Notes: generated by a model not told the origin, from the sequence alone. Positions 383 to 12,646 are shown, counted from the stretch's first letter. The stretch: 64,000 bases of DNA from Thermoplasmata archaeon (GCA_021797355.1 JAJZZX010000004.1:1-64000), one strand, 5' to 3'. Translations and numbers: made by a program.

Positions 383-1295
383 CCTTCAATGTTGGCATGA
401 ATTTTCATTCATGGAAATCCCGAGCAGGCAGGAGAATGTCCTATGATTACTTCAGGCCTTCAATGTTGCCATGAATTTTCATTCATGGAAATGCAACCAT
501 CAGGAAAACAGCCGATTCCGTCAGTGCATTCCTTCAATGTTGCCATGAATTTTCATTCATGGAAATAGGAAGCTGACAGGGAAACCGTACTCAATTACCT
601 CAGCCTTCAATGTTGCCATGAATTTTCATTCATGGAAATAGAGAAATGTGAAGATATCGCATCCGGGATCCTTGAAGCCTTCAATGTTGCCATGAATTTT
701 CATTCATGGAAATAGAATTACGTGAAGGATTATATCAATGCCACAGTAAACCTTCAATGTTGCCATGAATTTTCATTCATGGAAATTGGAGATCTTCTCC
801 CTCCCTATACCGGGGATTCATGCCTTCAATGTTGCCATGAATTTTCATTCATGGAAATATCCTTGTGGACATCCATAATACAACAGTATCATCCGCCCTT
901 CAGTGTTGCCATGAATTTTCATTCATGGAAATGCGGATATACCGTAACATGGTCTCATACCTTCAACTTCCTTCAATGTTGCCATGAATTTTCATTCATG
1001 GAAATCAACTGATGAGTAATCAACTGGGCTTGGCGTGAGGGACCTTCAATGTTGCCATGAATTTTCATTCATGGAAATGATACCTGGCGAGGAGAAAAGG
1101 CTTTTAGAAGAGCTCCTTCAATGTTGCCATGAATTTTCATTCATGGAAATCTTGGACCAGTGTTCAAGAGGGACTATCTTAGAGGGCCTTCAATGTTGCC
1201 ATGAATTTTCATTCATGGAAATATGCCGATACAAAGGAAATACAGGATGCTCTTGATGACCTTCAATGTTGCCATGAATTTTCATTCATGGAAAT
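383..1295 (-). CRISPR. CRISPR array, 13 repeats and 12 spacers, type I-G
   Basis: Thirteen 36-nt repeats start at 383, 457, 531, 604, 678, 751, 823, 897, 970, 1043, 1115, 1187 and 1260, separated by spacers of 36-38 nt. Read on the minus strand, each repeat starts ATTTCC and forms an 8-bp hairpin (CCATGAAT, loop GAAA, ATTCATGG). It ends ATTGAAGG, which resembles the common 8-nt 5' handle of type I crRNAs. Two repeats differ by one base. The 383 copy carries G for C at the base of the stem. The 897 copy has a change inside the handle (ACTGAAGG). The degenerate copy at the left, the handle and the cas operon to the right all indicate a leader on the right and minus-strand transcription. Spacer targets cannot be judged without a database search. 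Confidence 0.98.
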
Positions 1296-1601
1296 GGCTT
1301 TTTATACTCTTGGTTTTCCCCCATGATGTAATTATCTAGCAGGAATTAAGGTTTCTTTCAACTTTCCTTGGACTCTTGTTCGAGAGCTAACATAGACAAT
1401 TGTCTTACCAAATTATAAATCAACAATGAGCCAGTGAAAGGATTGCTATAGATACTGGTTTTTCAAAGATTCGAGTGGATACCCGTACAACGGCATGATA
1501 ATTACCGCTCGAAATTTGGGTTTATATGTTTTCGACTCCAATGAGTTCCGTTTCTCCCACCAAATCGGGTCGTTTTCATTGGAACCGCGGGCAGAGCAGA
1601 T
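1296..1601 (-). promoter_or_regulatory. CRISPR leader between cas2 and the array
   Basis: This 306-nt non-coding stretch lies between the cas2 stop and the newest repeat, where leaders of this layout sit. On the minus strand it holds two TATA candidates, one at 1411-1420 and one (TATAAAAA) at 1299-1306 that nearly touches the first repeat. A perfect 12-nt palindrome, AGACAATTGTCT, lies at 1394-1405 between them. Its role as promoter and as integration anchor for Cas1-Cas2 is inferred from position. Confidence 0.75.
1299..1306 (-). promoter_or_regulatory. TATA box abutting the leader-proximal repeat
   Basis: TATAAAAA on the minus strand ends 3 nt before the first repeat. With the usual archaeal spacing of about 25 nt, transcription would start near 1277, inside that repeat but before its handle. 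It could therefore drive the array directly. Confidence 0.45.
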
Positions 1602-1892
1602 TCAAATCACTAGTCTCCCCATAGTGTCTAATTCACGCTTCACGCCAATGAACTCTATTTTGGACCATTCAGCCTCCAAAGTGTTTCCAAGATTAACAAC
1701 CATTATGCTGTCTTCTTGAGGTTTTATTATGGGTAATAGGTTTGAGATCATTAGCATTTTTTCTATAAGCGAGAGCCTGCAAATAAACACAGAATACTGG
1801 ATTGGCTCGCCAAACCCCCTCATCTTAATATAAACCTTTCTGAGCCTCTTTTCGTCTTTGATGTCATACGTCACTAGGTAATTTGCCCTCAT
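1602..1892 (-). CDS. cas2: CRISPR-associated protein Cas2
   Basis: This 96-residue protein has the length and start of Cas2. Its first strand, NYLVTYDIKD, carries the conserved aspartate at about residue 10, and the ferredoxin-like core follows. Cas2 dimers bridge Cas1 dimers in the complex that inserts new spacers at the leader end of the array. The gene follows cas4-cas1 by 3 nt with the SD GAGGTGA directly before its ATG, so the two are surely co-transcribed and translationally linked. It is the last gene of the operon and lies next to the leader. Nothing looks broken. The family assignment is firm. Activity is inferred. Confidence 0.95.
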   Translation of the reverse strand: MRANYLVTYDIKDEKRLRKVYIKMRGFGEPIQYSVFICRLSLIEKMLMISNLLPIIKPQEDSIMVVNLGNTLEAEWSKIEFIGVKRELDTMGRLVI

Positions 1893-1895
1893 TCC

Positions 1896-3590
1896 TCACC
1901 TCGTACAAAACATTTCGTATTGTGCAATCTCACCTTCTAACCATCTTGCAACAAGCCTGCATTGCACTTCTATTATTCGTCTATAACTGATGCTATAACC
2001 GAAGAGAGGATGAGTTACGAGGCTGTCCATACGTTTTTCGTATTCCCTTATTACTTTCTTTCTTCCACTTTCTGTTATTCCTGTACCAATGCCACGTTCA
2101 ATGAAATCGCTTACCTTGATCTCTTCGTTGTTGATTAAGGAAATAACAGTCGAGTCCGCTATCAAAGGCCTAAACTCTTCCATTAGATCAAGCGCAAGTG
2201 CAGGTTTACCATACTTTGGCTGATGGTAGAAACCCATGTAGGGATCGAAACCAACTGATAGCAGCGTGATCGTAAGGTCCTTAGTCAAAAGGGAATACAG
2301 CAATGACAACATTGCATTTATGGGGTCCTTGGGAGGTCGCCTGTTCCTGTTTTCAAATCTGAATTCCTCCGAGAAATGATTCTCAACAATCATGTCTACG
2401 AAATGGCTGAAATAAATTCTCGCAGCGTTTCCCTCGATTCCAAGAAGCTCCTGAAGACTCTTTGCCGTGCGTGCTTTCCTGTATAATGATTGCAGTTCTG
2501 AGAGTGCAGAGGCGTTCTCAACTTTCGAATTTCTTCTCAGCAAAGTTCTGGAGTTTCTGATCTTCCCCTCAACTATAAGGCGCGAGATGCTGATAGCCTT
2601 AGCTGGATCCTGCGACGCAGAATACTGTCTTCTTCTGAGTATTACGTTTTTGTGGCTTAGGCCTGTTGTGATTCCGTTAAACCATCCACCCGTAGTGAAG
2701 TATGATACGCTGATATTACGCCTGCACAACTCATGGATTGCCTGGGTTGTTATCTGGACATTTCCGAAGACCGAAAGCTGTGATATATCTAGGAACCTTA
2801 TTTTCGCTACCGATTTACCCTCGCTCTTGATCTCGAGCTCTTCATTGCTCTTGCCGACAATAGCGCCCTGTAGCTGGACATAAAGTGGCAGAGTATCGTG
2901 ACGAGCAGGATATAGCCTCCTTACTTCATCTTCCAATCCACTTTTGTTTTCTTCTTTAAGTATTGTGATTTCATCCGGAAGACATAACGAAGCCACTGAG
3001 CAACGCTGGCATTTCGGGCTATCTATCAACGGTGGCGGTATTTTTTCACTATGCCAGAGATTCTTTGCACCCTCTATCATATTGATCGTTCTTGCCAAAA
3101 GATCCTCGGTTATTTCAACGGCGATCCTCTTCTTTGAGCCAGCATAGTAAATTTCCCCTCGTTCAACATTGTATCCGTTATCTCTCAGTATCAATGCTTG
3201 GGCACATATCTGGATGGCATCTGAAAACCATACTCCTTCCTGATTATCTGGAGATTTGGATTTCTTATATTCTACAGGGCATAATTTTCCATTGTCTTCT
3301 TCCACTAAATCCATTCGCGAAGAAATCCCATAGCGGAGGCTGGACATGAGCACTGACGTGGCCTTCATCTTTTGATGTTGGCCATCTTCGTGATGCTCAG
3401 CAGCATCTGTTAGTATGCCAGATTCAATGTCGACCTTCCTATGAATCATTCTGCCCTCAATAGTATCCCCTGAATCCCTGAAATCATTTTCCACCCATTC
3501 TATATAGAAGAGACGGGGGCAATACGCAAATTCATTTATCATTCGAACAGGGATATACAAATCACCGTTTTCTTCACCGTCATTTTGCAT
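1896..3590 (-). CDS. cas4-cas1: Cas4-Cas1 fusion, spacer acquisition nuclease-integrase
   Basis: This 564-residue protein joins two adaptation enzymes. Residues 1 to about 215 are a Cas4 RecB-like nuclease with its iron-sulfur cysteines (about C24, C194, C197, C203) and nuclease residues (about H50, D94, and E107 with K109). From about residue 228 on it is Cas1, with the catalytic glutamate in IEGNAARIYF (about E385), the histidine of FYHQPKYG (about 455), and acidic residues in LALDLMEEF. Cas4 trims prespacers and selects the PAM (protospacer-adjacent motif), and Cas1 integrates them. This fusion is characteristic of type I-G systems, as in Geobacter. All key residues are visible, so both halves look active. 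An SD-like GGAAGGTT precedes the ATG. Confidence 0.96.
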   Translation of the reverse strand: MQNDGEENGDLYIPVRMINEFAYCPRLFYIEWVENDFRDSGDTIEGRMIHRKVDIESGILTDAAEHHEDGQHQKMKATSVLMSSLRYGISSRMDLVEEDNGKLCPVEYKKSKSPDNQEGVWFSDAIQICAQALILRDNGYNVERGEIYYAGSKKRIAVEITEDLLARTINMIEGAKNLWHSEKIPPPLIDSPKCQRCSVASLCLPDEITILKEENKSGLEDEVRRLYPARHDTLPLYVQLQGAIVGKSNEELEIKSEGKSVAKIRFLDISQLSVFGNVQITTQAIHELCRRNISVSYFTTGGWFNGITTGLSHKNVILRRRQYSASQDPAKAISISRLIVEGKIRNSRTLLRRNSKVENASALSELQSLYRKARTAKSLQELLGIEGNAARIYFSHFVDMIVENHFSEEFRFENRNRRPPKDPINAMLSLLYSLLTKDLTITLLSVGFDPYMGFYHQPKYGKPALALDLMEEFRPLIADSTVISLINNEEIKVSDFIERGIGTGITESGRKKVIREYEKRMDSLVTHPLFGYSISYRRIIEVQCRLVARWLEGEIAQYEMFCTR

Positions 3591-3683
3591 TTTTAACCTT
3601 CCAACTAATGGCCTGAACCCAGCTGAACATAGAATCTAGTACAAAAAATGAGGGTTGTTCTCCCGAATTACCACGAAATCCCA

Positions 3684-4589
3684 TTAAGCGGTTGGTGCCC
3701 ATATTAATTCTCCCGGCTGGAATGATCCATAACCCTTTGCAAATTCCATCCTTCTGGATCCATATATAGCGGCCACACCTCTCTGCTGAAGATTACCCCT
3801 CAATGTTTCATCAAATACCTCACTTGACAGTAACAGGCTCCGTATGGAAGATTCATCAGATGGTCTTACCCATATGGGCCAGATAAAATAATCTCCGATG
3901 AACCCTGATGTAATTCTCTTTTTTCCTTCTGCAAGTGTCGGGAAAAGTGGCAGTGATTCGTAGGCGAGCCATTCCGCAGCCACTTCACATAATGGTGAAT
4001 TATCGGTGGAAGGTTCACGACTCCTAAAGGCATGCATTCTGTATGTATTGGGGTCCCATCCCATGGCCAGAGAGTGATCGTCCTTATATTTCCAAGATTC
4101 AAAGAGAGCCTCCATAATTTTGCTTTTATTTACACTATTCATTGCATTTTTAACCTTGTTCAGAAATTTCTGCTGTCCTGAAGCCATGTAGAAGTCGGTA
4201 GGTTTAATCAAACCTTTTGATTTGTCAATCGCCAACTCTGAGCCGAATGCAGCCCAGAAATCAGCCTTTGTCCTTATGGAATATGTGGAAGAATACAGAA
4301 TTTTAGCCGCCTTTTCAACGAACACTTCAGGCTTCATCCGGATATCATCGTCGTCAAAGAAATCCTTTTTTTCTTGCTCTAGATGCGCATAAATCGACGA
4401 TACCAGGCTCTCACACTCAATCTCAATATCTGTAACTAGCACTGGCACCCAGTCATCTTGCTCTCTCCAGTAAATCTTTGGCCTGTACTGATAGAGCTTA
4501 CTGGAGGCGATCCTGAGCACACCAAGTGCAGCCATTATCCCAATGGGAGAGCTTCCCGTTAGTCCCGCCAGTTCAATTTCACTTACCAT
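3684..4589 (-). CDS. csb3: Csb3 (Cas8g2), probable large-subunit analogue of the I-G Cascade
   Basis: This 301-residue protein begins with a segment like the Csb3/Csx17 N-terminus (ELAGLTGSSPIGIMAALGVL) near residue 5. Its place between cas3 and cas4-cas1 also fits Csb3 (the GSU0052 family). In type I-G complexes this family, or the larger Csx17, is thought to take the place of Cas8 in recognising target DNA. I chose the ATG at 4589 because GGAGGAGG lies about 8 nt before it, although the frame is open 16 codons further. It overlaps the end of cas3 by 11 nt. The family is divergent, so the name rests on the motif and gene order. Confidence 0.8.
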   Translation of the reverse strand: MVSEIELAGLTGSSPIGIMAALGVLRIASSKLYQYRPKIYWREQDDWVPVLVTDIEIECESLVSSIYAHLEQEKKDFFDDDDIRMKPEVFVEKAAKILYSSTYSIRTKADFWAAFGSELAIDKSKGLIKPTDFYMASGQQKFLNKVKNAMNSVNKSKIMEALFESWKYKDDHSLAMGWDPNTYRMHAFRSREPSTDNSPLCEVAAEWLAYESLPLFPTLAEGKKRITSGFIGDYFIWPIWVRPSDESSIRSLLLSSEVFDETLRGNLQQRGVAAIYGSRRMEFAKGYGSFQPGELIWAPTA

Positions 4590-7461
4590 GATTCTCTGCC
4601 TCCTCCTCCGACTCCCTGTGATCACCCAGGCGGACAATCATCTCCAAATATGGCAGCCCCCAGTATCCATACCTCTTCAGCATCCTCCAGAACAGGCTGG
4701 GCCACTCCGAGTCAATTCTGTCAAGGCCATGGTACCCGTGATAGTTCACCCGGACACCAAGGAAATTAATGTCTATAGAGGTCCCATTATCCTTGACCAC
4801 AGGCATCAGTGCCCTACCCCTTCCGTGGTGAGAGCCAACAATATATTTGACCAAATCCGGATCGCCAGCTTTCCCCTCAATAAGTTCTGGGGTGCTATCC
4901 AGAATGGCAAGCGAGTAGCATTCATGCCTGCCTCCACTGGGATATCCTGACTTGTCTCTTGCAGCTAATATAGCGTTCAAATCAATTCCGGCACCTCTGG
5001 ATTTGGCTAAAGGTTGAATATCCTTGTTCCACGGCATACCGCCACGGAGCCATGACTGAAATCTTGGGTCAGATTTGCCGAGATCATGCAACAGCCCAGC
5101 CGTAGACAGGTCCGAAACAATTTCATTGGGAAGTCCAAGAGAATTGGCAAAGGTGCGCACATACTTAGCCACTCCCTTGCTGTGATCCTCCAGGGAGACA
5201 TCGGCGCTATAAGACGAACTGTCATCCTCGTCCGTTGTTTCCGTAGCTTGTCTAACCCTCATTTCCAGCACTAACCCTGAGGGTTGAACGGAGGGATATA
5301 TCCATTCTTTCCGCTTATGCCCCGCAGAGGCCCAGTTCCCAAGGGATTCAGCCACAGCAGGACTGATGTCTGGCAGTTCTGATATCCTGATCAAATAACT
5401 CTCTACGAGATCATGAAGGTCTTCTCCTGACGTGAAGTCAGCTATCATCGATTTCAAAAGCTCTCTGCATTTTTCCACGGATTCTGAATCAGGATTGATG
5501 AACCATGAAGAGGCAAGTGCGGGATGAAGCCTGAACAACTGCCTCCTGTATACCTTACTGGCAGCTGCCTCGGCAATATCTGCCACAGGTAGCTTATAGT
5601 CAGGATTCCAGCCGAAACGATCGTATCCCCCATAGGCAGAAGGCAGGATCAGAGTCTGCCCTGGATCTATATCCTTGCTGCCTACTATCTTCCCCCCCTG
5701 CATACCGTTCCAAACAAAAGCTTTCCTAGAAGTCGCCTGACCGCTGTTTGAATCTGATATTTTGCTGCCCTCAACATCCGGGAAGTCTGATTCTAACCCT
5801 TCTAGGAATTTCTTGACCGCCCATATGGGTATTGGGGCAGCTTCATAGGAGTTTGGCGGTATTGATGCCAATGTTTCCCAAATACCCTTCTCACCAAGTT
5901 TTTCAAGATCCTCTGGAATGTCGGCCCGCCATATAACTTGGACATCAGGGGACGATTCCGATGTACCGTGAAGCAGCAGTGGTATGCTTGGCTGGAAGGC
6001 AGGTTCTGGCGACGTCTGTGCCAGCAGATCAAGATGGGATGGCATCAACAGAGGGGTGCCATCAAGGTTGCTTCCAAGATTCGGCGCAGGATGAGTTTGC
6101 TTTAGGTTTTCAAATGCGATGGGGCCAAAATCCACAACATCATGGCTCTTAACTGTATCCAGCCATTTCCAGGCATTTTTCCACGCGTCGCCGTATATGG
6201 ATGCATTAATTTCCTCCCTTTCTGGTGAATAGACAATCTCTCCAAACGACCCAGTTTTGGAACCGAGCCTGTTGAGTCTTCCAAAGCGCTGCTGCAGTGA
6301 GCTCAACGGAGCATTTTCTGATATCATTACGTCGAAGTCTAGGTTGGCCCCAACCTCTATGGTTTGAGTTGAAACCACTATAATGGGCCTGTTCCTGTGC
6401 TGATCTTCCGCTCCAGCCTTCATCTTGGGCAGAATGTTCTCCAGAATGGTGTCTCTCTCGAAGGGCCTGATCCTTCCGACGATCTTGACCACTTCGGCCT
6501 CGTTGTACTTTGAAAGCTCTGAATAGATTGAATTTGCCAGTGCAACGGTATTCACGACGACACTCACAGCAGCATTCTTGCGTTTATTCAGCACCAGCTT
6601 TACCCTATAAGAGAATTCTTCCGCCAGATGCTGGACCTGCTTCACGTGGTCAGATTCTCGGTTGCCCTTTAATTTGATGAGTTTCACAGGTTTGCTTACT
6701 GTAAGCCTGCGAGATAACAAGGGATCAGCGAGATCTTCGGAGTCAAGGCCAAATGCTGTCCCAGATGAACCGGTATGTGTAGCACTCATGCTCACAACTG
6801 ATAGGTTGTTTCCCACCGATATTTCCGACCATTCCTGCCCTTGATATTTCTTCACTGTGTTCAGTGTCTTGAGGAATGGCTCAGAAAGATGTGCCTCGTC
6901 CAGAATTATTATGGAGTCCTTTCCTGCCAGGGCTGCGTGCACAGGCCGCATGAATGGGCTTACACCATACCCCCTGAAGAGAAGACGGGAACCTATTTGG
7001 TCAACTGTTGTCATGATCAATGTTGGTTGAAGGGGATTCTTAATGAAGATCGGCTCATGCGGGATTCCACCATGCATCCTTATGACCTCCAGGGGCTGAG
7101 AACCTTTCAGCATTGCAGATGATGCCAGTGCCCTGGCAACTTCACCAACAGTGTTATCAGTTCCCATTGATGAGACGAGAGATTCCCGTAACCTCATGGC
7201 AGCCAAATACGCTTCATCCACAACAAACCGCCTGTCCACTGTGTAAAATATCCTTCTTTGCGGATTCTTTCCTCTTATTATGCGGAGGGCCATGCTGAAG
7301 ACAGCTACGTCTATCACGGATGTCTTTCCGGCTGAAGTTGGCAGCGATATGATTTCAGGCCATCCATTTTGCTCAACAACTGATAGAAGCCGCTTTTGCC
7401 AAGGAAATGGATTAAACCCATGCACCGCCCGGAAGAAGCCTGCAAAGTCCCCTACGTCCAT
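4579..7461 (-). CDS. cas3: Cas3 helicase with C-terminal HD nuclease, type I-G form
   Basis: This 960-residue protein unwinds and degrades DNA marked by Cascade. Superfamily 2 helicase motifs are visible in order: Walker A SAGKTS (43-48), DEAH (188-191), SAT (226-228), and QRFGRLNR of motif VI. The HD nuclease lies at the C-terminus instead of the usual N-terminus: HD at about 792-793, H846, HH at 878-879, and a final D near 947. C-terminal HD is the arrangement of type I-G Cas3 (GSU0051). The ATG follows the csb2 stop with no gap and has AGGAGGGT about 6 nt upstream, so translation is coupled. All catalytic motifs look intact, so the interference arm should work. Confidence 0.96.
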   Translation of the reverse strand: MDVGDFAGFFRAVHGFNPFPWQKRLLSVVEQNGWPEIISLPTSAGKTSVIDVAVFSMALRIIRGKNPQRRIFYTVDRRFVVDEAYLAAMRLRESLVSSMGTDNTVGEVARALASSAMLKGSQPLEVIRMHGGIPHEPIFIKNPLQPTLIMTTVDQIGSRLLFRGYGVSPFMRPVHAALAGKDSIIILDEAHLSEPFLKTLNTVKKYQGQEWSEISVGNNLSVVSMSATHTGSSGTAFGLDSEDLADPLLSRRLTVSKPVKLIKLKGNRESDHVKQVQHLAEEFSYRVKLVLNKRKNAAVSVVVNTVALANSIYSELSKYNEAEVVKIVGRIRPFERDTILENILPKMKAGAEDQHRNRPIIVVSTQTIEVGANLDFDVMISENAPLSSLQQRFGRLNRLGSKTGSFGEIVYSPEREEINASIYGDAWKNAWKWLDTVKSHDVVDFGPIAFENLKQTHPAPNLGSNLDGTPLLMPSHLDLLAQTSPEPAFQPSIPLLLHGTSESSPDVQVIWRADIPEDLEKLGEKGIWETLASIPPNSYEAAPIPIWAVKKFLEGLESDFPDVEGSKISDSNSGQATSRKAFVWNGMQGGKIVGSKDIDPGQTLILPSAYGGYDRFGWNPDYKLPVADIAEAAASKVYRRQLFRLHPALASSWFINPDSESVEKCRELLKSMIADFTSGEDLHDLVESYLIRISELPDISPAVAESLGNWASAGHKRKEWIYPSVQPSGLVLEMRVRQATETTDEDDSSSYSADVSLEDHSKGVAKYVRTFANSLGLPNEIVSDLSTAGLLHDLGKSDPRFQSWLRGGMPWNKDIQPLAKSRGAGIDLNAILAARDKSGYPSGGRHECYSLAILDSTPELIEGKAGDPDLVKYIVGSHHGRGRALMPVVKDNGTSIDINFLGVRVNYHGYHGLDRIDSEWPSLFWRMLKRYGYWGLPYLEMIVRLGDHRESEEEAENHGK

Positions 7462-8916
7462 CTAATACCCTCCTGAAAATGGATGCAGGAGACCAAAACC
7501 CGAAAATCTCCCAGAACCAACGATGGCTGGTCCGTTTAAACTCTCCCTGAATCTCAATATGGCGTGCATCCTGAGATATTTTCTGAACTTTTGAGGTACA
7601 GCAAAGTCTCTTGAGAGAGCAACTCCTTCAAATACGCTGGTTGACATGGGTATTATCTCCTCGGGCTGTGGAATTCCTGCCATCAGGCAGGCTTCTTTGA
7701 AAACTGGCCCACCATTTCTCCCAGGTCCAAGTGAAGATGGTTTGGGATGCTTGCCAAGTACGATCGGGGTTACGGTTGCCCAAACTTTGCTCGACCCCTC
7801 GTAATGGCTAAGGTCTAGACCAATAGGGAAATATTGAATTAGATCCGGTTCAATGAGTTGCACTTGGAATGACCCAAGCCTGCCAAGCTTCAGGTCATAG
7901 AGCTTTGCCGCAGCGGCTCCAAGTGCAGTTCTGACCTCCGGGTCTGCAGAATCTGGCAGAATCAGTGAAAAGCCCATAAGATGACCTCTCGCAAAGCTGT
8001 GGCCCATATCAATATGTGGCACTACTGATAGGTGCGGAGCTTTCAGGGGAGAACCATCTTGTTGATGGCCTGAAATTATTTCCGGAATAGGATCTGGATA
8101 GAGTGACAGTATTGCTGACCTGGCAGCATCTATGAACCTGTGAAATGCCGTACCTGGAATAATCTCGTGACTGTTTAACTTAAAAGTGAAGCTGTACCCA
8201 GGGACTCTGCCAGTAATCTTTTCATCTGTCTTGGAACCTGCTAGCCCATACCTGACAATCCTTCCAGCCCTAGGCTGAATCCCTGGGTTGCGCTGCCTAA
8301 GCGTGTGCAACTGTTCAAGGTATTTCAACCTTCCCTGGCCAATGGACCTCAGGCTGAATAGGCCGTTCTGTTTCGGGACTATATTGGGGGTAAGGTCTCC
8401 GGTAGTCACCCTAACTGCGACGGGAGATGAGGAATGACCAAGGTATGTGATTCTCTCTGCTATAGATCTCAACCCGGGTATGTAAGTATCGCATTCTTCC
8501 CCAACATTCCAGATGAACCTTACATGCCTGTCAGCTGGTGCTATTGAAGGAAAATTTCTTTCTGCCCTGAGCCTGTTTACACCGATTCCTGGCGAGATTG
8601 ATGGTTGCTTTCTGTACGACTGTACAGATTTCCGATCCTTTGCGCTGGGGGAATCATTTACGGGTACGAAGTATGTCACCTGCGTTTTCCCTAGTTCGTG
8701 CGGATTAAACGCATCTATGAAGAGTGAAGGGTCTCCAAGCGTTTCAAGCCACTCAAGTGATTTCCTGGCATCAATTCCGAGATCATTGTCCTTGTATGCA
8801 GCTACAAAGGCAGAAAAAAGCCTGCTAGGGTGCGGCGGGTATTCCACAGTTGACCTGTCACTATAGGATGATGCGACCACCCTCCCCATTAGATATTCAA
8901 CATCAACTATGAGCAT
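7462..8916 (-). CDS. csb2: Csb2, Cas5-Cas6 fusion of the I-G Cascade
   Basis: This protein of about 484 residues matches Csb2 (GSU0054). It opens with a RAMP strand (LIVDVEYLMGRVVASSY) followed by EYPPHPSRLFSAFVAA, typical of the Cas5-like half. It ends with the glycine-rich loop GSGRFSGFGLLHPF of Cas6-like RAMPs. It should cut the pre-crRNA at the repeat hairpin and hold the crRNA 5' handle. The start is uncertain. The frame is open from TTG 8949, AGGAGGA lies at 8931-8937, and candidates are GTG 8928 (3 nt away) or ATG 8916 (15 nt away). I give the ATG because it aligns with the family start. No separate cas6 is present, consistent with the fusion. Confidence 0.92.
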   Translation of the reverse strand: MLIVDVEYLMGRVVASSYSDRSTVEYPPHPSRLFSAFVAAYKDNDLGIDARKSLEWLETLGDPSLFIDAFNPHELGKTQVTYFVPVNDSPSAKDRKSVQSYRKQPSISPGIGVNRLRAERNFPSIAPADRHVRFIWNVGEECDTYIPGLRSIAERITYLGHSSSPVAVRVTTGDLTPNIVPKQNGLFSLRSIGQGRLKYLEQLHTLRQRNPGIQPRAGRIVRYGLAGSKTDEKITGRVPGYSFTFKLNSHEIIPGTAFHRFIDAARSAILSLYPDPIPEIISGHQQDGSPLKAPHLSVVPHIDMGHSFARGHLMGFSLILPDSADPEVRTALGAAAAKLYDLKLGRLGSFQVQLIEPDLIQYFPIGLDLSHYEGSSKVWATVTPIVLGKHPKPSSLGPGRNGGPVFKEACLMAGIPQPEEIIPMSTSVFEGVALSRDFAVPQKFRKYLRMHAILRFRESLNGPAIVGSGRFSGFGLLHPFSGGY

Positions 8917-8958
8917 GGATATTTTCACCGTCCTCCTGTTTTGAAGCAATTATGCATT

Positions 8959-10173
8959 CTATGCCTCGTTTTCCTCTTCGTCATGAAGCTCACGGCTTCT
9001 CCTTATTAAGTCTATCAGGTTAGAGTTTGGCTTAAGAGCCACATCCCTGTCCAGCCAAGGGAGCCCTGCTTTTCTTGCTTGATCGATCGAATTAACTAGA
9101 ATCTCATCGGCTGTCTTTGAATCTACGCTGAAGAATCTGGAGCTGCCATCCTTGTTAATCAATTCCAGCGGCGGAATTCCCTCCGGCACAAGAAGGCAGC
9201 GGGACCTTAGATCATAGCCTTTATCCCGAGCATGGGATACTGCGGATATTGCCAATGAGAGCAATACAACTTGCGCTTTCTTGTCAGTGGCTTCGCTGTT
9301 CGCCCCGTCCAGTGGAAAGCGCAACTTCTTAAGAGCAGGTATTGAAATTACCGTAGTCTGAACTGCTCCATCTATGGAAACTCCACCTCCGGTCTCCTTG
9401 ATTGTTGGTACCACGTTTCCCAGGTTCAGTTCAGATAACTTCTTTGGAAATTTCTTAGGCTTGTTCTTTTCCAGAACCGATTTTTCAGGAACTGCTGTCC
9501 AGGTACCGTCAGAGGTCTCAAAAAGGGAAGGATTAGAACGAATGATCGGATCAATTCTTGAGGACGTCTGGACACCTGGTTTTGCATTGAGACCGACTAT
9601 TTCCGAAACAACAGTTCTCTGAAACTTGTTTCCCATACCACCGGGTCCGGTGGAATCCCATATCCCAAATATCAATGCATGTGGGCAGTAATGGAAGAGC
9701 CCAGTGGCATCCCTAATATTTGACCTGACGAATGACTGGCCTATTTCAGTATCTCTGAATGGAACTCCATTCAGGGAGCTCTCCCTGAATATTGCATCTG
9801 CAATTCTATGTGGCACTTCATATGTGCTGATCTTTCCAATGTCTGGGAAATATTCACTAAAATCTGTATATAGTAAGCCGATGCCCAAATTCCTCGATTT
9901 TATGGCCTGCAACAATGCCTCTTCCATTCTATTTGCCTGGGACTGGACTGAATCCAGCAGCACACTTTGCACCAATTGCCCATTCTCTCCAATCCTGGTT
10001 TCGAAGGCATATTTCCCCTCTGCAAAAGTTGGAGGGTAAACCTTGCTCCCCTTTCCGCCGGCTGGATAGAGCCTAGTAATCTGTCGGAAGGCGGATCCAG
10101 AATCCATAGATTCCAGCAAGTCCTCATAGCTTATTTTACGATATTTTTGCTTCTCTTCATCCATTTCATTCAT
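8959..10173 (-). CDS. csb1: Csb1, Cas7-type backbone subunit of the I-G Cascade
   Basis: This 404-residue protein carries the strong signature of Csb1 (GSU0053): RLYPAGGKGSKVYPPTF and then LLDSVQSQANRMEEALL near residues 72-90. Csb1 copies are expected to coat the crRNA spacer and form the Cascade filament. It is the first gene of the six-gene cas operon, and csb2 follows with a short gap. The ATG at 10173 has GAGGTTAG at 10183-10190, a good SD distance. A weak TATA-like GTATTTTTT lies at 10205-10213. Family and role within I-G are clear. Confidence 0.95.
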   Translation of the reverse strand: MNEMDEEKQKYRKISYEDLLESMDSGSAFRQITRLYPAGGKGSKVYPPTFAEGKYAFETRIGENGQLVQSVLLDSVQSQANRMEEALLQAIKSRNLGIGLLYTDFSEYFPDIGKISTYEVPHRIADAIFRESSLNGVPFRDTEIGQSFVRSNIRDATGLFHYCPHALIFGIWDSTGPGGMGNKFQRTVVSEIVGLNAKPGVQTSSRIDPIIRSNPSLFETSDGTWTAVPEKSVLEKNKPKKFPKKLSELNLGNVVPTIKETGGGVSIDGAVQTTVISIPALKKLRFPLDGANSEATDKKAQVVLLSLAISAVSHARDKGYDLRSRCLLVPEGIPPLELINKDGSSRFFSVDSKTADEILVNSIDQARKAGLPWLDRDVALKPNSNLIDLIRRSRELHDEEENEA

Positions 10174-10669: not shown

Positions 10670-11788
10670 ATGGAACATCCTTCTGCCCTGGCCCCGTTTA
10701 TGAATAAAATTTTAATGGGAGACACCGTTGAAACATTGCAAAGTTTACCAGATAACACAGCCGATCTGATATTTGCTGACCCGCCTTACAATCTTCAGCT
10801 TAGAGATGAATTATGGAGGCCTAACCAGACAAAGGTTAAAGCTGTCAGCGATGAATGGGATAGGTTCAGTAATTTCAGGGAATATGATGAATTCTCCTTG
10901 AAATGGCTTACAGAATGCAGGAGGGTCTTGAAGAAAGATGGCTCAATCTGGGTAATAGGTACTTACCACAATATATTCAGAATTGGAAAGATAATGCAAG
11001 ATCTCGGCTTCTGGATCATCAACGATATCATCTGGATCAAGACAAACCCCATGCCAAACTTCCGGGGCACCAGGTTCACCAACGCCCACGAAACCCTGAT
11101 TTTCGCAGCCAAGAGCATTGATTCTAAGTACTCTTTCCACTACAAGTCAATGCGGGCTTACAACGACGATGTCCAGATGCGCAGCGACTGGGAAATTCCA
11201 ATCTGCAGTGGAAGTGAAAGAATAAAGATCAATGGCAGGAAGGCACATTCTACCCAGAAGCCTGAAGAGCTTCTCAAAAGGATAATCATTGCCTCCTCGA
11301 ATCCAGGTGACATAGTGCTGGACCCTTTCTTTGGTAGTGGGACGACCGGAGCAGTGGCAAAGCTGCTCAGAAGAAATTTCATAGGCATAGAGCGCAGGGA
11401 GGATTATGTGGGACTGGCTGAGGAGAGGATATCCAAGGTCGTTCCGCTTGAAGCTGATCTCATATCATATCCACTTGATGAGAGACCGGTGCGCGTCCCG
11501 TTTGGAAACCTGGTGTCTGCAAGGATGATAGCTGCCGGCGAGACCATTTTTTCAGCTGACATGAAAAACAGGGCAATTGTGCTGGCTAACGGGACAGTTA
11601 AGAGCGGCAACATATCTGGATCGATACACCATGTGAGCGCTGTCCTGCAAGGAAAACAGAACTATAACGGCTGGTCATACTGGTATGTCCTCAGGGACAA
11701 TAACCTTGTGAGCATTGATCACCTCAGGAACGAATACAGGAAGAATGCTTCCAGGATCGCGCCTCCTGACAATGATTCCTCTATCTAA
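10670..11788 (+). CDS. CcrM/HinfI-like adenine-N6 DNA methyltransferase with RAMA domain
   Basis: This 372-residue protein resembles CcrM of alphaproteobacteria along its whole length. It shows the catalytic DPPYNLQL (from residue 37), IWVIGTYHNIFRIG, NPMPNFRGTRFTNAHETLIF, AYNDDVQMRSDWEIP, KAHSTQKPEELL, and the SAM-binding DPFFGSGTTG (218-227). The C-terminal part, about residues 280-365 (RVPFGNLVSARMI to GWSYWYVL), matches the RAMA domain found in CcrM. The family methylates adenine in GANTC. I infer the same target here, but it must be measured. No restriction gene lies beside it, so it looks like an orphan enzyme, probably acquired from bacteria. It is divergent from the cas operon and not part of it. 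Confidence 0.93.
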   Translation: MEHPSALAPFMNKILMGDTVETLQSLPDNTADLIFADPPYNLQLRDELWRPNQTKVKAVSDEWDRFSNFREYDEFSLKWLTECRRVLKKDGSIWVIGTYHNIFRIGKIMQDLGFWIINDIIWIKTNPMPNFRGTRFTNAHETLIFAAKSIDSKYSFHYKSMRAYNDDVQMRSDWEIPICSGSERIKINGRKAHSTQKPEELLKRIIIASSNPGDIVLDPFFGSGTTGAVAKLLRRNFIGIERREDYVGLAEERISKVVPLEADLISYPLDERPVRVPFGNLVSARMIAAGETIFSADMKNRAIVLANGTVKSGNISGSIHHVSAVLQGKQNYNGWSYWYVLRDNNLVSIDHLRNEYRKNASRIAPPDNDSSI

Positions 11789-11929: not shown

Positions 11930-12646
11930 CTGGAAGGGCCTGGAACACGCATCGTGGCGTCAAGCATCAGATCGATTGTTGGCGAGAAGATTCTCTACTC
12001 CCTGAAGGGTGGCCAATGGAAGGCAGCTAAATTAAGGGATGTCTATGTACAGGGGAAACGGCTATATCTTCATCTTGACAATACTGTGTGCGAAATTTTC
12101 TTCGGCATGTATGGAAAAATGACCACCTCGCCTTATGGCACTAGGACTGCCTCCCTGGGCATACGGGCGGAGAGCACTCAATTTTATTTCTATACATGTT
12201 CGGTAAAATTTCTCTCCGAGGACCAGTTTTATGGTATATTCCGGCCTTCAATAGACGTTCTCTCACCGGAATTTTCTGTTGCAGAGGCCGCACTCAAGAT
12301 CAAGAATCCGGAAAACGAAATGCGGCAAGTGTGTGACATACTCCTTGACCAGGAAATATTTGCTGGAGTTGGAAATATAATCAAGAACGAGGCTTTGTTC
12401 AATGCTGGCATTCTGCCTGGGAGACTAGGCAAAACCATCAGCGCCCATGAGGCTGAGAATCTGGCTGCCTGTGTGCGCGAATTTTCCATGGTGTTCCTGG
12501 CAATGAGGATGAAGGGATCAAAGTTATCCAGCTTTTCCAGGGTATATTTCAAGGCAAAATGCCAGAGCTGCGGTGGTAAAATCTCAAGGGGAAAATGCGG
12601 AACTACCAACAGGATAACATTCTGGTGCAGCAGCTGTCAGAAATGA
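11930..12646 (+). CDS. Fpg/Nei (NEIL3-like) DNA glycosylase, apparent CTG start
   Basis: About 238 residues. The protein shows the Fpg/Nei plan. The N-terminal EGPGTR resembles EGPE of Nei and EGPG of NEIL3. A strand in QGKRLYLHLDN carries the conserved lysine. The H2TH segment is DQEIFAGVGNIIKNEALF, and a C-terminal zinc finger has CQSCGG and CSSCQ pairs. Such enzymes excise oxidised bases and cut the abasic site. EGPGTR lies upstream of the only standard start (GTG 11954), and an in-frame TAG at 11921 leaves CTG 11930 as the sole plausible start. The usual nucleophile at residue 2 (Pro, or Val in NEIL3) is not where expected. Family is sure. Chemistry and exact start are not. Confidence 0.85.
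   Translation: MEGPGTRIVASSIRSIVGEKILYSLKGGQWKAAKLRDVYVQGKRLYLHLDNTVCEIFFGMYGKMTTSPYGTRTASLGIRAESTQFYFYTCSVKFLSEDQFYGIFRPSIDVLSPEFSVAEAALKIKNPENEMRQVCDILLDQEIFAGVGNIIKNEALFNAGILPGRLGKTISAHEAENLAACVREFSMVFLAMRMKGSKLSSFSRVYFKAKCQSCGGKISRGKCGTTNRITFWCSSCQK

What the first reader, a model, noticed from the sequence alone, without database searches (positions are those of the whole stretch)
383..10173. Complete type I-G CRISPR-Cas locus in an archaeon
All genes of a I-G system are present and intact by motif: Csb1 (Cas7), Csb2 (Cas5-Cas6), Cas3 with C-terminal HD, Csb3, Cas4-Cas1 and Cas2. Type I-G has been studied mostly in bacteria such as Geobacter. An apparently complete archaeal copy in a Thermoplasmatales genome, with Csb3 and not Csx17, is a useful comparison. 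The operon and array share one strand.
Basis: partly seen in the sequence, partly recalled or inferred. Interest (0 to 1): 0.65.

Follow-up and report, generated by a model that had tools for sequence, protein, structure and literature searches.

The report
A Thermoplasma-like archaeon carries a complete, intact type I-G CRISPR-Cas immune system; the system type is already known, also in archaea, but this copy is a hybrid that joins a DNA-targeting part of a mainly bacterial kind to a spacer-acquiring part typical of its own archaeal relatives.

Summary
On the minus strand, 383-10173 encodes csb1, csb2, cas3 (C-terminal HD), csb3, a cas4-cas1 fusion and cas2, followed by an array of 13 repeats (36 nt). 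All proteins pass curated I-G cut-offs and all catalytic motifs are intact. The host is an archaeon: proteasome and transaldolase best match Thermoplasma acidophilum-type structures. 'Csb3, not Csx17' is right.

The proposed reading needs correcting in two ways. (1) Archaeal I-G is not new: it is published for 'E-plasma' (Thermoplasmatales), and I found Cas4g-Cas1g over the cut-off in 13 of 390 genomes of the phylum. The Csb3 kind is rare there: 1 of 293. (2) Neither 'archaeal clade' nor 'nested in bacteria' fits the whole locus, because it is a mosaic. Cas4-1 and Cas2 belong with Csx17/Cas8g2-type Thermoplasmata loci (99/99 support; the alternative rejected, AU p=1e-5). Csb1, Csb2, Cas3 and Csb3 belong with a mainly bacterial Csb3-type group whose closest member is a Methanosaeta MAG.

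Two adjacent spacers match an integrated element in a complete congener genome, both beside a 5' TTC. This fits the I-G TTN PAM and fixes array orientation. Module exchange of this sort is a known process: a new member of a known kind.

The parts
383..1295 (-). CRISPR array, 13 repeats of 36 nt (minus-strand sense ATTTCCATGAATGAAAATTCATGGCAACATTGAAGG), 12 spacers of 36-38 nt
   Evidence: hairpin fold; orientation from the 5' TTC beside two protospacers and the altered repeat at the far end
787..822 (-). spacer 6; matches an integrated element in congener G286 with 2 mismatches in 36, 5' TTC
859..896 (-). spacer 7; matches the same element of G286, 3.5 kb away, 5 mismatches in 38, 5' TTC
1296..1601 (-). 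leader region between cas2 and the first repeat (TATAAAAAGCC at the junction)
   Evidence: position and orientation; no similarity to other leaders beyond the last bases
1602..1892 (-). cas2 (96 aa)
   Evidence: TIGR01573 over cut-off, PADLOC Cas2g E=9e-26; D10 in 57 of 57
1896..3590 (-). cas4-cas1 fusion (564 aa)
   Evidence: NF049935 E=1.6e-230; Cas4 Cys 24/194/197/203, D94, K109; Cas1 E386, H456, D468/E471 invariant or nearly so
3684..4589 (-). csb3 (about 301 aa), small Cas8g-position subunit
   Evidence: NF049934 E=1.1e-69; PADLOC Cas8g PDLC01514 E=5.7e-71; AlphaFold model pLDDT 93
4579..7461 (-). cas3g helicase-nuclease with C-terminal HD (960 aa)
   Evidence: TIGR02621 E=2e-218; GKT, DEAH, QRFGRLNR, HD 792-793, HH 878-879
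7462..8949 (-). csb2 (Cas5-Cas6 fusion); likely start about 8916
   Evidence: TIGR02165 E=3.3e-61; conserved H306 and C-terminal H462
8959..10173 (-). csb1 / cas7g (404 aa)
   Evidence: PF09617 E=5.7e-47; TIGR02570 over cut-off

Best explanation
[quoted passage not shown] Expected working, inferred from characterised I-G systems: the minus-strand array transcript is cut by the Cas6-like C-terminal half of Csb2, 4 nt after the repeat hairpin, leaving the 8-nt handle AUUGAAGG. Csb1 subunits coat the crRNA, Csb3 takes the place of the large subunit Cas8g and links to Cas3, and the complex binds DNA next to a 5' TTN motif (TTC in the two cases seen). Cas3 then unwinds and shreds the target. Cas4-Cas1 with Cas2 trims, selects and inserts new spacers at the cas2-side end of the array. 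By descent the locus is a mosaic: the adaptation module (cas4-1, cas2) is of the local Thermoplasmata lineage, and the effector module (csb1-csb2-cas3-csb3) is of a Csb3-type group found mostly in bacteria. Shown here: gene content, intact motifs, repeat hairpin, two spacer targets with TTC, opposite phylogenies. Inferred: biochemistry, direction and order of the exchange.
For: Profile hits over curated cut-offs for all six genes. Motifs conserved in 56-94 homologues. Repeat folds into an 8-bp stem with CAAC before ATTGAAGG, which matches the Csb2 cleavage rule in PMC9638904. Spacers 6 and 7 match one element in G286 with TTC on the 5' side both times; the region has a resolvase and a tyrosine integrase overlapping tRNA-Asp. 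Cas4-1 tree: window inside Thermoplasmata, 97/97 and 99/99; window with the Csb3-type rows rejected, AU p=1.2e-5, with Methanosaeta p=2.4e-4. Cas3 tree: window with Methanosaeta and bacterial Csb3-type rows (95/93; 97 and 99 SH-aLRT); window with its Cas4-1 neighbour L057 rejected, p=1e-35. BLASTP ranks: csb1, csb2 and cas3 50/42/40% to Methanosaeta and about 20-30% to Thermoplasmata loci, csb3 about 37% to Methanosaeta and a myxococcal MAG; cas4-1 and cas2 57/56% to Thermoplasmata loci. Archaeal host genes on the same contig.
Against: No expression or activity data. Only 2 of 12 spacers have a target in the genomes searched, and the target is in a congener, not a free virus. In the Cas3 test a basal position of the window next to all Thermoplasmata rows is not formally rejected (p=0.058-0.065), because it attaches to one long branch; trees are unrooted and some rows are long. 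The closest effector relative is a MAG contig of 20 kb whose bin assignment I could not verify. Repeats do not discriminate: 31 of 36 identical both to Methanosaeta and to G151.
Confidence: 0.86

Rival explanations
1. The whole locus came as one piece from a bacterium (simple horizontal transfer), and the apparent mosaic is a sampling or long-branch effect.
For: Gene order csb1-csb2-cas3-csb3-cas4-1-cas2 is identical to the Rhodothermus marinus plasmid locus. Effector genes sit among bacterial ones. Bacterial Csx17-type Cas4-1 are not in my tree.
Against: Cas4-1 with all Csb3-type rows is rejected (AU p=1.2e-5) and is inside Thermoplasmata at 99/99. The nine best Cas2 matches after the window itself, and the five best Cas4-1 matches, are Thermoplasmata.
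Confidence: 0.08
2. Old residence: a Csb3-type I-G was ancestral in Thermoplasmata or archaea, kept here and in Methanosaeta and lost or replaced elsewhere.
For: Window and Methanosaeta Cas3 are sisters (97 SH-aLRT; 78/91 unstarred). A basal Cas3 position is not formally rejected.
Against: 1 of 293 genomes of the phylum has Csb3 over the cut-off. The four other genomes of the genus lack Cas3g over the cut-off. 79 of the 80 best genome loci besides the window are not archaeal. The archaeal pair sits inside bacterial rows.
Confidence: 0.06
3. The locus is a contaminating or misbinned bacterial contig end.
For: It lies at the very start of contig C1 and the assembly is a 15-contig draft; the effector genes look bacterial.
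Against: Same 176-kb contig as archaeal proteasome beta, aCPSF1 and transaldolase with Thermoplasma best hits. 12.6-16.2 kb has gene order shared with complete congener G286. GC is fairly even. Cas4-1 is of the Thermoplasmata kind, and spacers hit a congener.
Confidence: 0.03
4. A decayed or silent locus.
For: Only 12 spacers; the two spacers with a known target carry 2 and 5 mismatches to it.
Against: No gene is broken and catalytic residues are kept; repeats are near identical.
Confidence: 0.05

Closest known systems
Csb3-type I-G locus of Rhodothermus marinus plasmid pRMAR01 (NC_013502)
   Same: Same six genes in the same order (csb1-csb2-cas3-csb3-cas4-1-cas2), repeat also ends ...ATTGAAGG
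   Different: Bacterial plasmid; Cas3 36% and Cas4-1 46% identical; Cas4-1 not in the Thermoplasmata group
Methanosaeta sp. PtaB.Bin018 locus (L076, MVQH01000006)
   Same: Archaeal, Csb3-type effector, closest csb1/csb2/cas3 (50/42/40%) and csb3 about 37%
   Different: Array lies between csb3 and cas4-1; its Cas4-1 groups with a different Thermoplasmata family
I-G loci of Thermoplasmata, Csx17/Cas8g1 type, including published 'E-plasma' (PMC10354927)
   Same: Cas4-Cas1 fusion and Cas2 alike (Cas4-1 47-57% identical) and one tree group; 36-nt repeats alike
   Different: Order cas3-csx17-csb1-csb2-cas4-1-cas2, Csx17 of 680-812 aa, effector proteins only about 20-30% identical
Thioalkalivibrio sulfidiphilus I-G effector (PMC9638904)
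   Same: Csb2 cleavage 4 nt past the hairpin with 8-nt handle; Cas3 bound through Cas8g; TTN PAM
   Different: Large Cas8g1/Csx17 subunit instead of small Csb3
Bifidobacterium lactis I-G (PMC12915315)
   Same: Csb1, Csb2, Csb3, Cas3, Cas4-Cas1, Cas2; works in vivo
   Different: TAT PAM reported; its Csb3 was not compared with the window's here

Membership tests
Type I-G CRISPR-Cas | Csb2 (GSU0054 family, Cas5-Cas6 fusion), the signature gene | tested here: met
   TIGR02165 208 bits vs cut-off 45
Type I-G CRISPR-Cas | Csb1/Cas7g (GSU0053 family) | tested here: met
   TIGR02570 56.3 vs 38; PF09617 160 vs 25
Type I-G CRISPR-Cas | Cas3g with C-terminal HD nuclease | tested here: met
   TIGR02621 728 vs 400; HD at residues 757-887, conserved HD and HH motifs
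Type I-G CRISPR-Cas | Cas4-Cas1 fusion plus Cas2 | tested here: met
   NF049935 766 vs 560; TIGR01573
Type I-G CRISPR-Cas | Cas8g-position subunit (Csx17, Cas8g2 or Csb3) | tested here: met
   Csb3: NF049934 235 vs 65
Type I-G CRISPR-Cas | 36-nt repeat with hairpin and 8-nt handle; TTN PAM | tested here: met
   TTC at both protospacers found, only two cases
Type I-G CRISPR-Cas | RNA-guided DNA interference in vivo | not testable with these tools
   no wet data
Csx17-type (Cas8g1) I-G of Thermoplasmata | Csx17 large subunit | tested here: not met
   no TIGR04113 match in the locus; Csb3 instead
Csx17-type (Cas8g1) I-G of Thermoplasmata | Cas4-1 of the Thermoplasmata group | tested here: met
   99/99 support, alternative rejected
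Csb3 as a Cas8g-like large subunit (rather than a Cas6-like RAMP) | sequence or fold link to Cas8g1/Csx17 | tested here: inconclusive
   hhalign links the first 61 columns (prob 83, E 9e-6); no PDB fold match at E<=0.001 for the confident model

The most novel reading that the evidence does not exclude
In Thermoplasmata, related Cas4-1/Cas2/repeat platforms work with three different I-G effectors (Csx17, Cas8g2, Csb3), and this locus records an effector swap across the archaeal-bacterial divide: an adaptation module and array that stay while effectors come and go.
Probability: 0.6. Interest if true: 0.45.

Novelty: new member of a known kind. Interest (0 to 1): 0.33.

Why it matters
It adds a rare archaeal example of the smallest I-G effector variant and a clear case of effector exchange inside one subtype. 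Because closely related Cas4-1/Cas2 sit beside Csx17, Cas8g2 or Csb3 effectors, Thermoplasmata offer a ready comparison for whether spacer acquisition (PAM choice) and interference must be matched. The general process, adaptation genes fixed and effectors shuffled, is already described (PMC6452270).

Tried and rejected
Exact 20-22 nt seeds of four spacers in IMG/VR: no match. Array against phage records: no match. Target AAA protein in viral contigs: no relative. Csb3 fold search in the PDB: nothing at E<=0.001. Csb1 against PDB sequences: none. Leader comparison across loci: only the last bases near the repeat look alike. Repeat sequence as evidence for module origin: equal distance to both candidates (31 of 36, counted by eye). 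AU test of window plus all Thermoplasmata Cas3 rows: p=0.058-0.065, so a basal placement is not excluded; I do not use it as proof.

Full report
WHAT IS THERE. The six genes and the array are at the stated place on the minus strand. Transcription order is csb1 (10173-8959), csb2 (8949-7462), cas3 (7461-4579), csb3 (about 4589-3684), cas4-cas1 (3590-1896), cas2 (1892-1602), leader (1601-1296), array (1295-383). Neighbouring genes touch or overlap by a few bases, apart from about 90 nt between csb3 and cas4-1, so one transcript is likely (inference). Every protein passes the curated NCBIfam cut-off for I-G and the PADLOC I-G models; Csb3 is NF049934 ('Cas3-extension family') and PADLOC 'Cas8g'. 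Catalytic motifs are intact and conserved across 56-94 homologues: Cas3 GKT/DEAH/QRxGRxNR/HD/HH, Cas4 four Cys with D94 and K109, Cas1 E386-H456-D468/E471, Cas2 D10, Csb2 H306 and H462. H462 is my guess for the catalytic histidine that PMC9638904 places at the Csb2 C-terminus.

HOST. The locus lies at the start of a 176-kb contig of a 1.74-Mb, 95.6% complete genome. On the same contig the proteasome beta subunit and a transaldolase best match PDB entries 1pma and 3s0c, which from my own knowledge are Thermoplasma acidophilum proteins, and aCPSF1 is present. Genes at 12.6-16.2 kb keep their order in G286, a complete genome of the same genus. The cas genes and the CcrM-like methylase and glycosylase beside them have no counterpart in the stretch of G286 I took (96-136 kb). 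So the locus sits in a variable region of a genuine archaeal chromosome. No other I-G Cas1 or Cas3 over the cut-off was seen in this genome.

ARRAY, ORIENTATION AND TARGETS. The repeat in minus-strand sense folds as an 8-bp stem with a 4-nt loop, followed by CAAC and ATTGAAGG. This is the geometry in which I-G Csb2 cuts 4 nt past the stem to leave an 8-nt handle (PMC9638904). A DNA search of the 77 genomes of the family found two spacer matches, both in G286: spacer 6, 2 mismatches in 36; spacer 7, 5 mismatches in 38; targets 3.5 kb apart. Both protospacers have TTC directly on the 5' side, in line with the TTN motif reported for I-G. Matches this close are not expected by chance in 2 Mb. The target region contains a resolvase, a 1985-aa protein without a family, an AAA ATPase (hit by spacer 6) and a tyrosine integrase whose end overlaps a tRNA-Asp gene: an integrated mobile element. 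Two neighbouring spacers against one element suggest real acquisition events by this lineage. No viral contig matched.

RELATIVES. A scan of GTDB genomes with a Cas3 profile returned 80 loci: one archaeal, Methanosaeta sp. PtaB.Bin018, and the rest bacterial (Pseudomonadota, Planctomycetota, Acidobacteriota, Myxococcota and others). csb1-csb2-cas3-csb3 is kept as a block, while cas4-1/cas2 vary in place, order and presence. In a Victivallales MAG, Cas3 and Csb3 are fused in one 1356-aa protein, which supports a direct Cas3-Csb3 contact. In the window's phylum, Csb3 is over the cut-off only in this genome of 293, but I-G Cas4-1 is in 13 of 390 and Cas3g in 8 of 77 of the family. Of the Thermoplasmata loci with a readable effector region, ten have a Csx17-size protein of 680-812 aa at the large-subunit position that aligns as one family (two of them run against the Csx17 profile and both over the cut-off), and two (G151, G421) the Cas8g2/GSU0052 subunit, G421 below its cut-off. 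A published genome, E-plasma, has I-G with Csx17 (PMC10354927). Archaeal I-G is therefore known.

MOSAIC. BLASTP ranking splits the locus in two. Csb1, Csb2 and Cas3 are nearest to Methanosaeta and then bacteria, with about 20-30% to other Thermoplasmata; Csb3 is nearest to a myxococcal MAG and Methanosaeta at 37%. Cas4-1 and Cas2 are nearest to Thermoplasmata loci at 57 and 56%. The Cas4-1 tree puts the window inside Thermoplasmata (97/97 and 99/99). Holding it with the Csb3-type rows is rejected (p=1.2e-5), and so is holding it with Methanosaeta (p=2.4e-4). The Cas3 trees put it with Methanosaeta and bacterial Csb3-type rows (97 and 99 SH-aLRT; 95/93). Pairing it with L057, a near Cas4-1 neighbour, is rejected (p=1e-35). 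A basal position beside all Thermoplasmata Cas3 is not rejected (p=0.058-0.065), because those rows hang on a very long branch. The repeat is equally far from both candidate sources and does not help. So the adaptation and effector modules have different histories. Which one moved is not shown; effector exchange onto a fixed adaptation module is the usual pattern (PMC6452270), and I take it as the more likely.

CSB3. AlphaFold gives a confident model (pLDDT 93.3, pTM 0.92) with no PDB fold match at E<=0.001. Profile comparison links its first 61 columns to the N-terminus of Csx17 (probability 83, E 9e-6), around the shared motif PxxxLxALGxLR; one Csx17 (L061) also touches the Csb3 model weakly. 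Makarova 2011 (PMC3150331) saw no trace of Cas8 in such loci and likened Csb3 to Cas6-like RAMPs with a helical C-terminal extension. My data lean to a cut-down Cas8g but do not settle it.

VERDICT. Ordinary in kind, well supported, with one worthwhile twist (the mosaic).

Noticed in passing
G286:C1 about 116-134 kb (L171 2264-18115): Integrated element in the congener G286: resolvase, 1985-aa protein with no Pfam or PHROG hit, AAA ATPase, tyrosine integrase overlapping tRNA-Asp; hit by window spacers 6 and 7. Left boundary not found.
   Followed up: partly
L172 10212-10247 (G210:C26:57211-57246): A single repeat copy, 2 mismatches from the window's repeat, stands alone near the A-type ATPase operon of another genus that has no I-G Cas3 or Cas4-1 over the cut-off: a possible relic of a lost array.
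   Followed up: partly
L054 3017-3886, L063 7977-8747: Two Thermoplasmata I-G loci carry the Cas8g2 (GSU0052) subunit, so three Cas8g kinds occur with related Cas4-1 proteins in this phylum (L063 scores below the curated cut-off).
   Followed up: yes
L126 4943-9013: Victivallales MAG with Cas3 and Csb3 fused into one 1356-aa protein.
   Followed up: yes
plasmid loci L072, L073, L074, L075: Thermus, Streptomyces, Azotobacter and Methylomagnum plasmids carry csb1-csb2-cas3-csb3 without cas4-1/cas2 alongside: stand-alone Csb3-type effector modules.
   Followed up: partly
window 10670-11788 and 11954-12646: CcrM-like adenine methyltransferase with a RAMA domain, and an Fpg/Nei-like glycosylase with the H2TH domain, sit between the cas genes and the conserved block shared with G286; neither has a counterpart in the stretch of G286 taken (96-136 kb).
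   Followed up: partly
L076 14816-18509: Genes of unknown family beside the Methanosaeta I-G locus, one with an ATPase-like N-terminus; possibly another defence cassette.
   Followed up: no
L071 10209-11132: The csb3 gene of Rhodothermus marinus pRMAR01 runs across the start of the circular record and is missing from the gene table used.
   Followed up: yes
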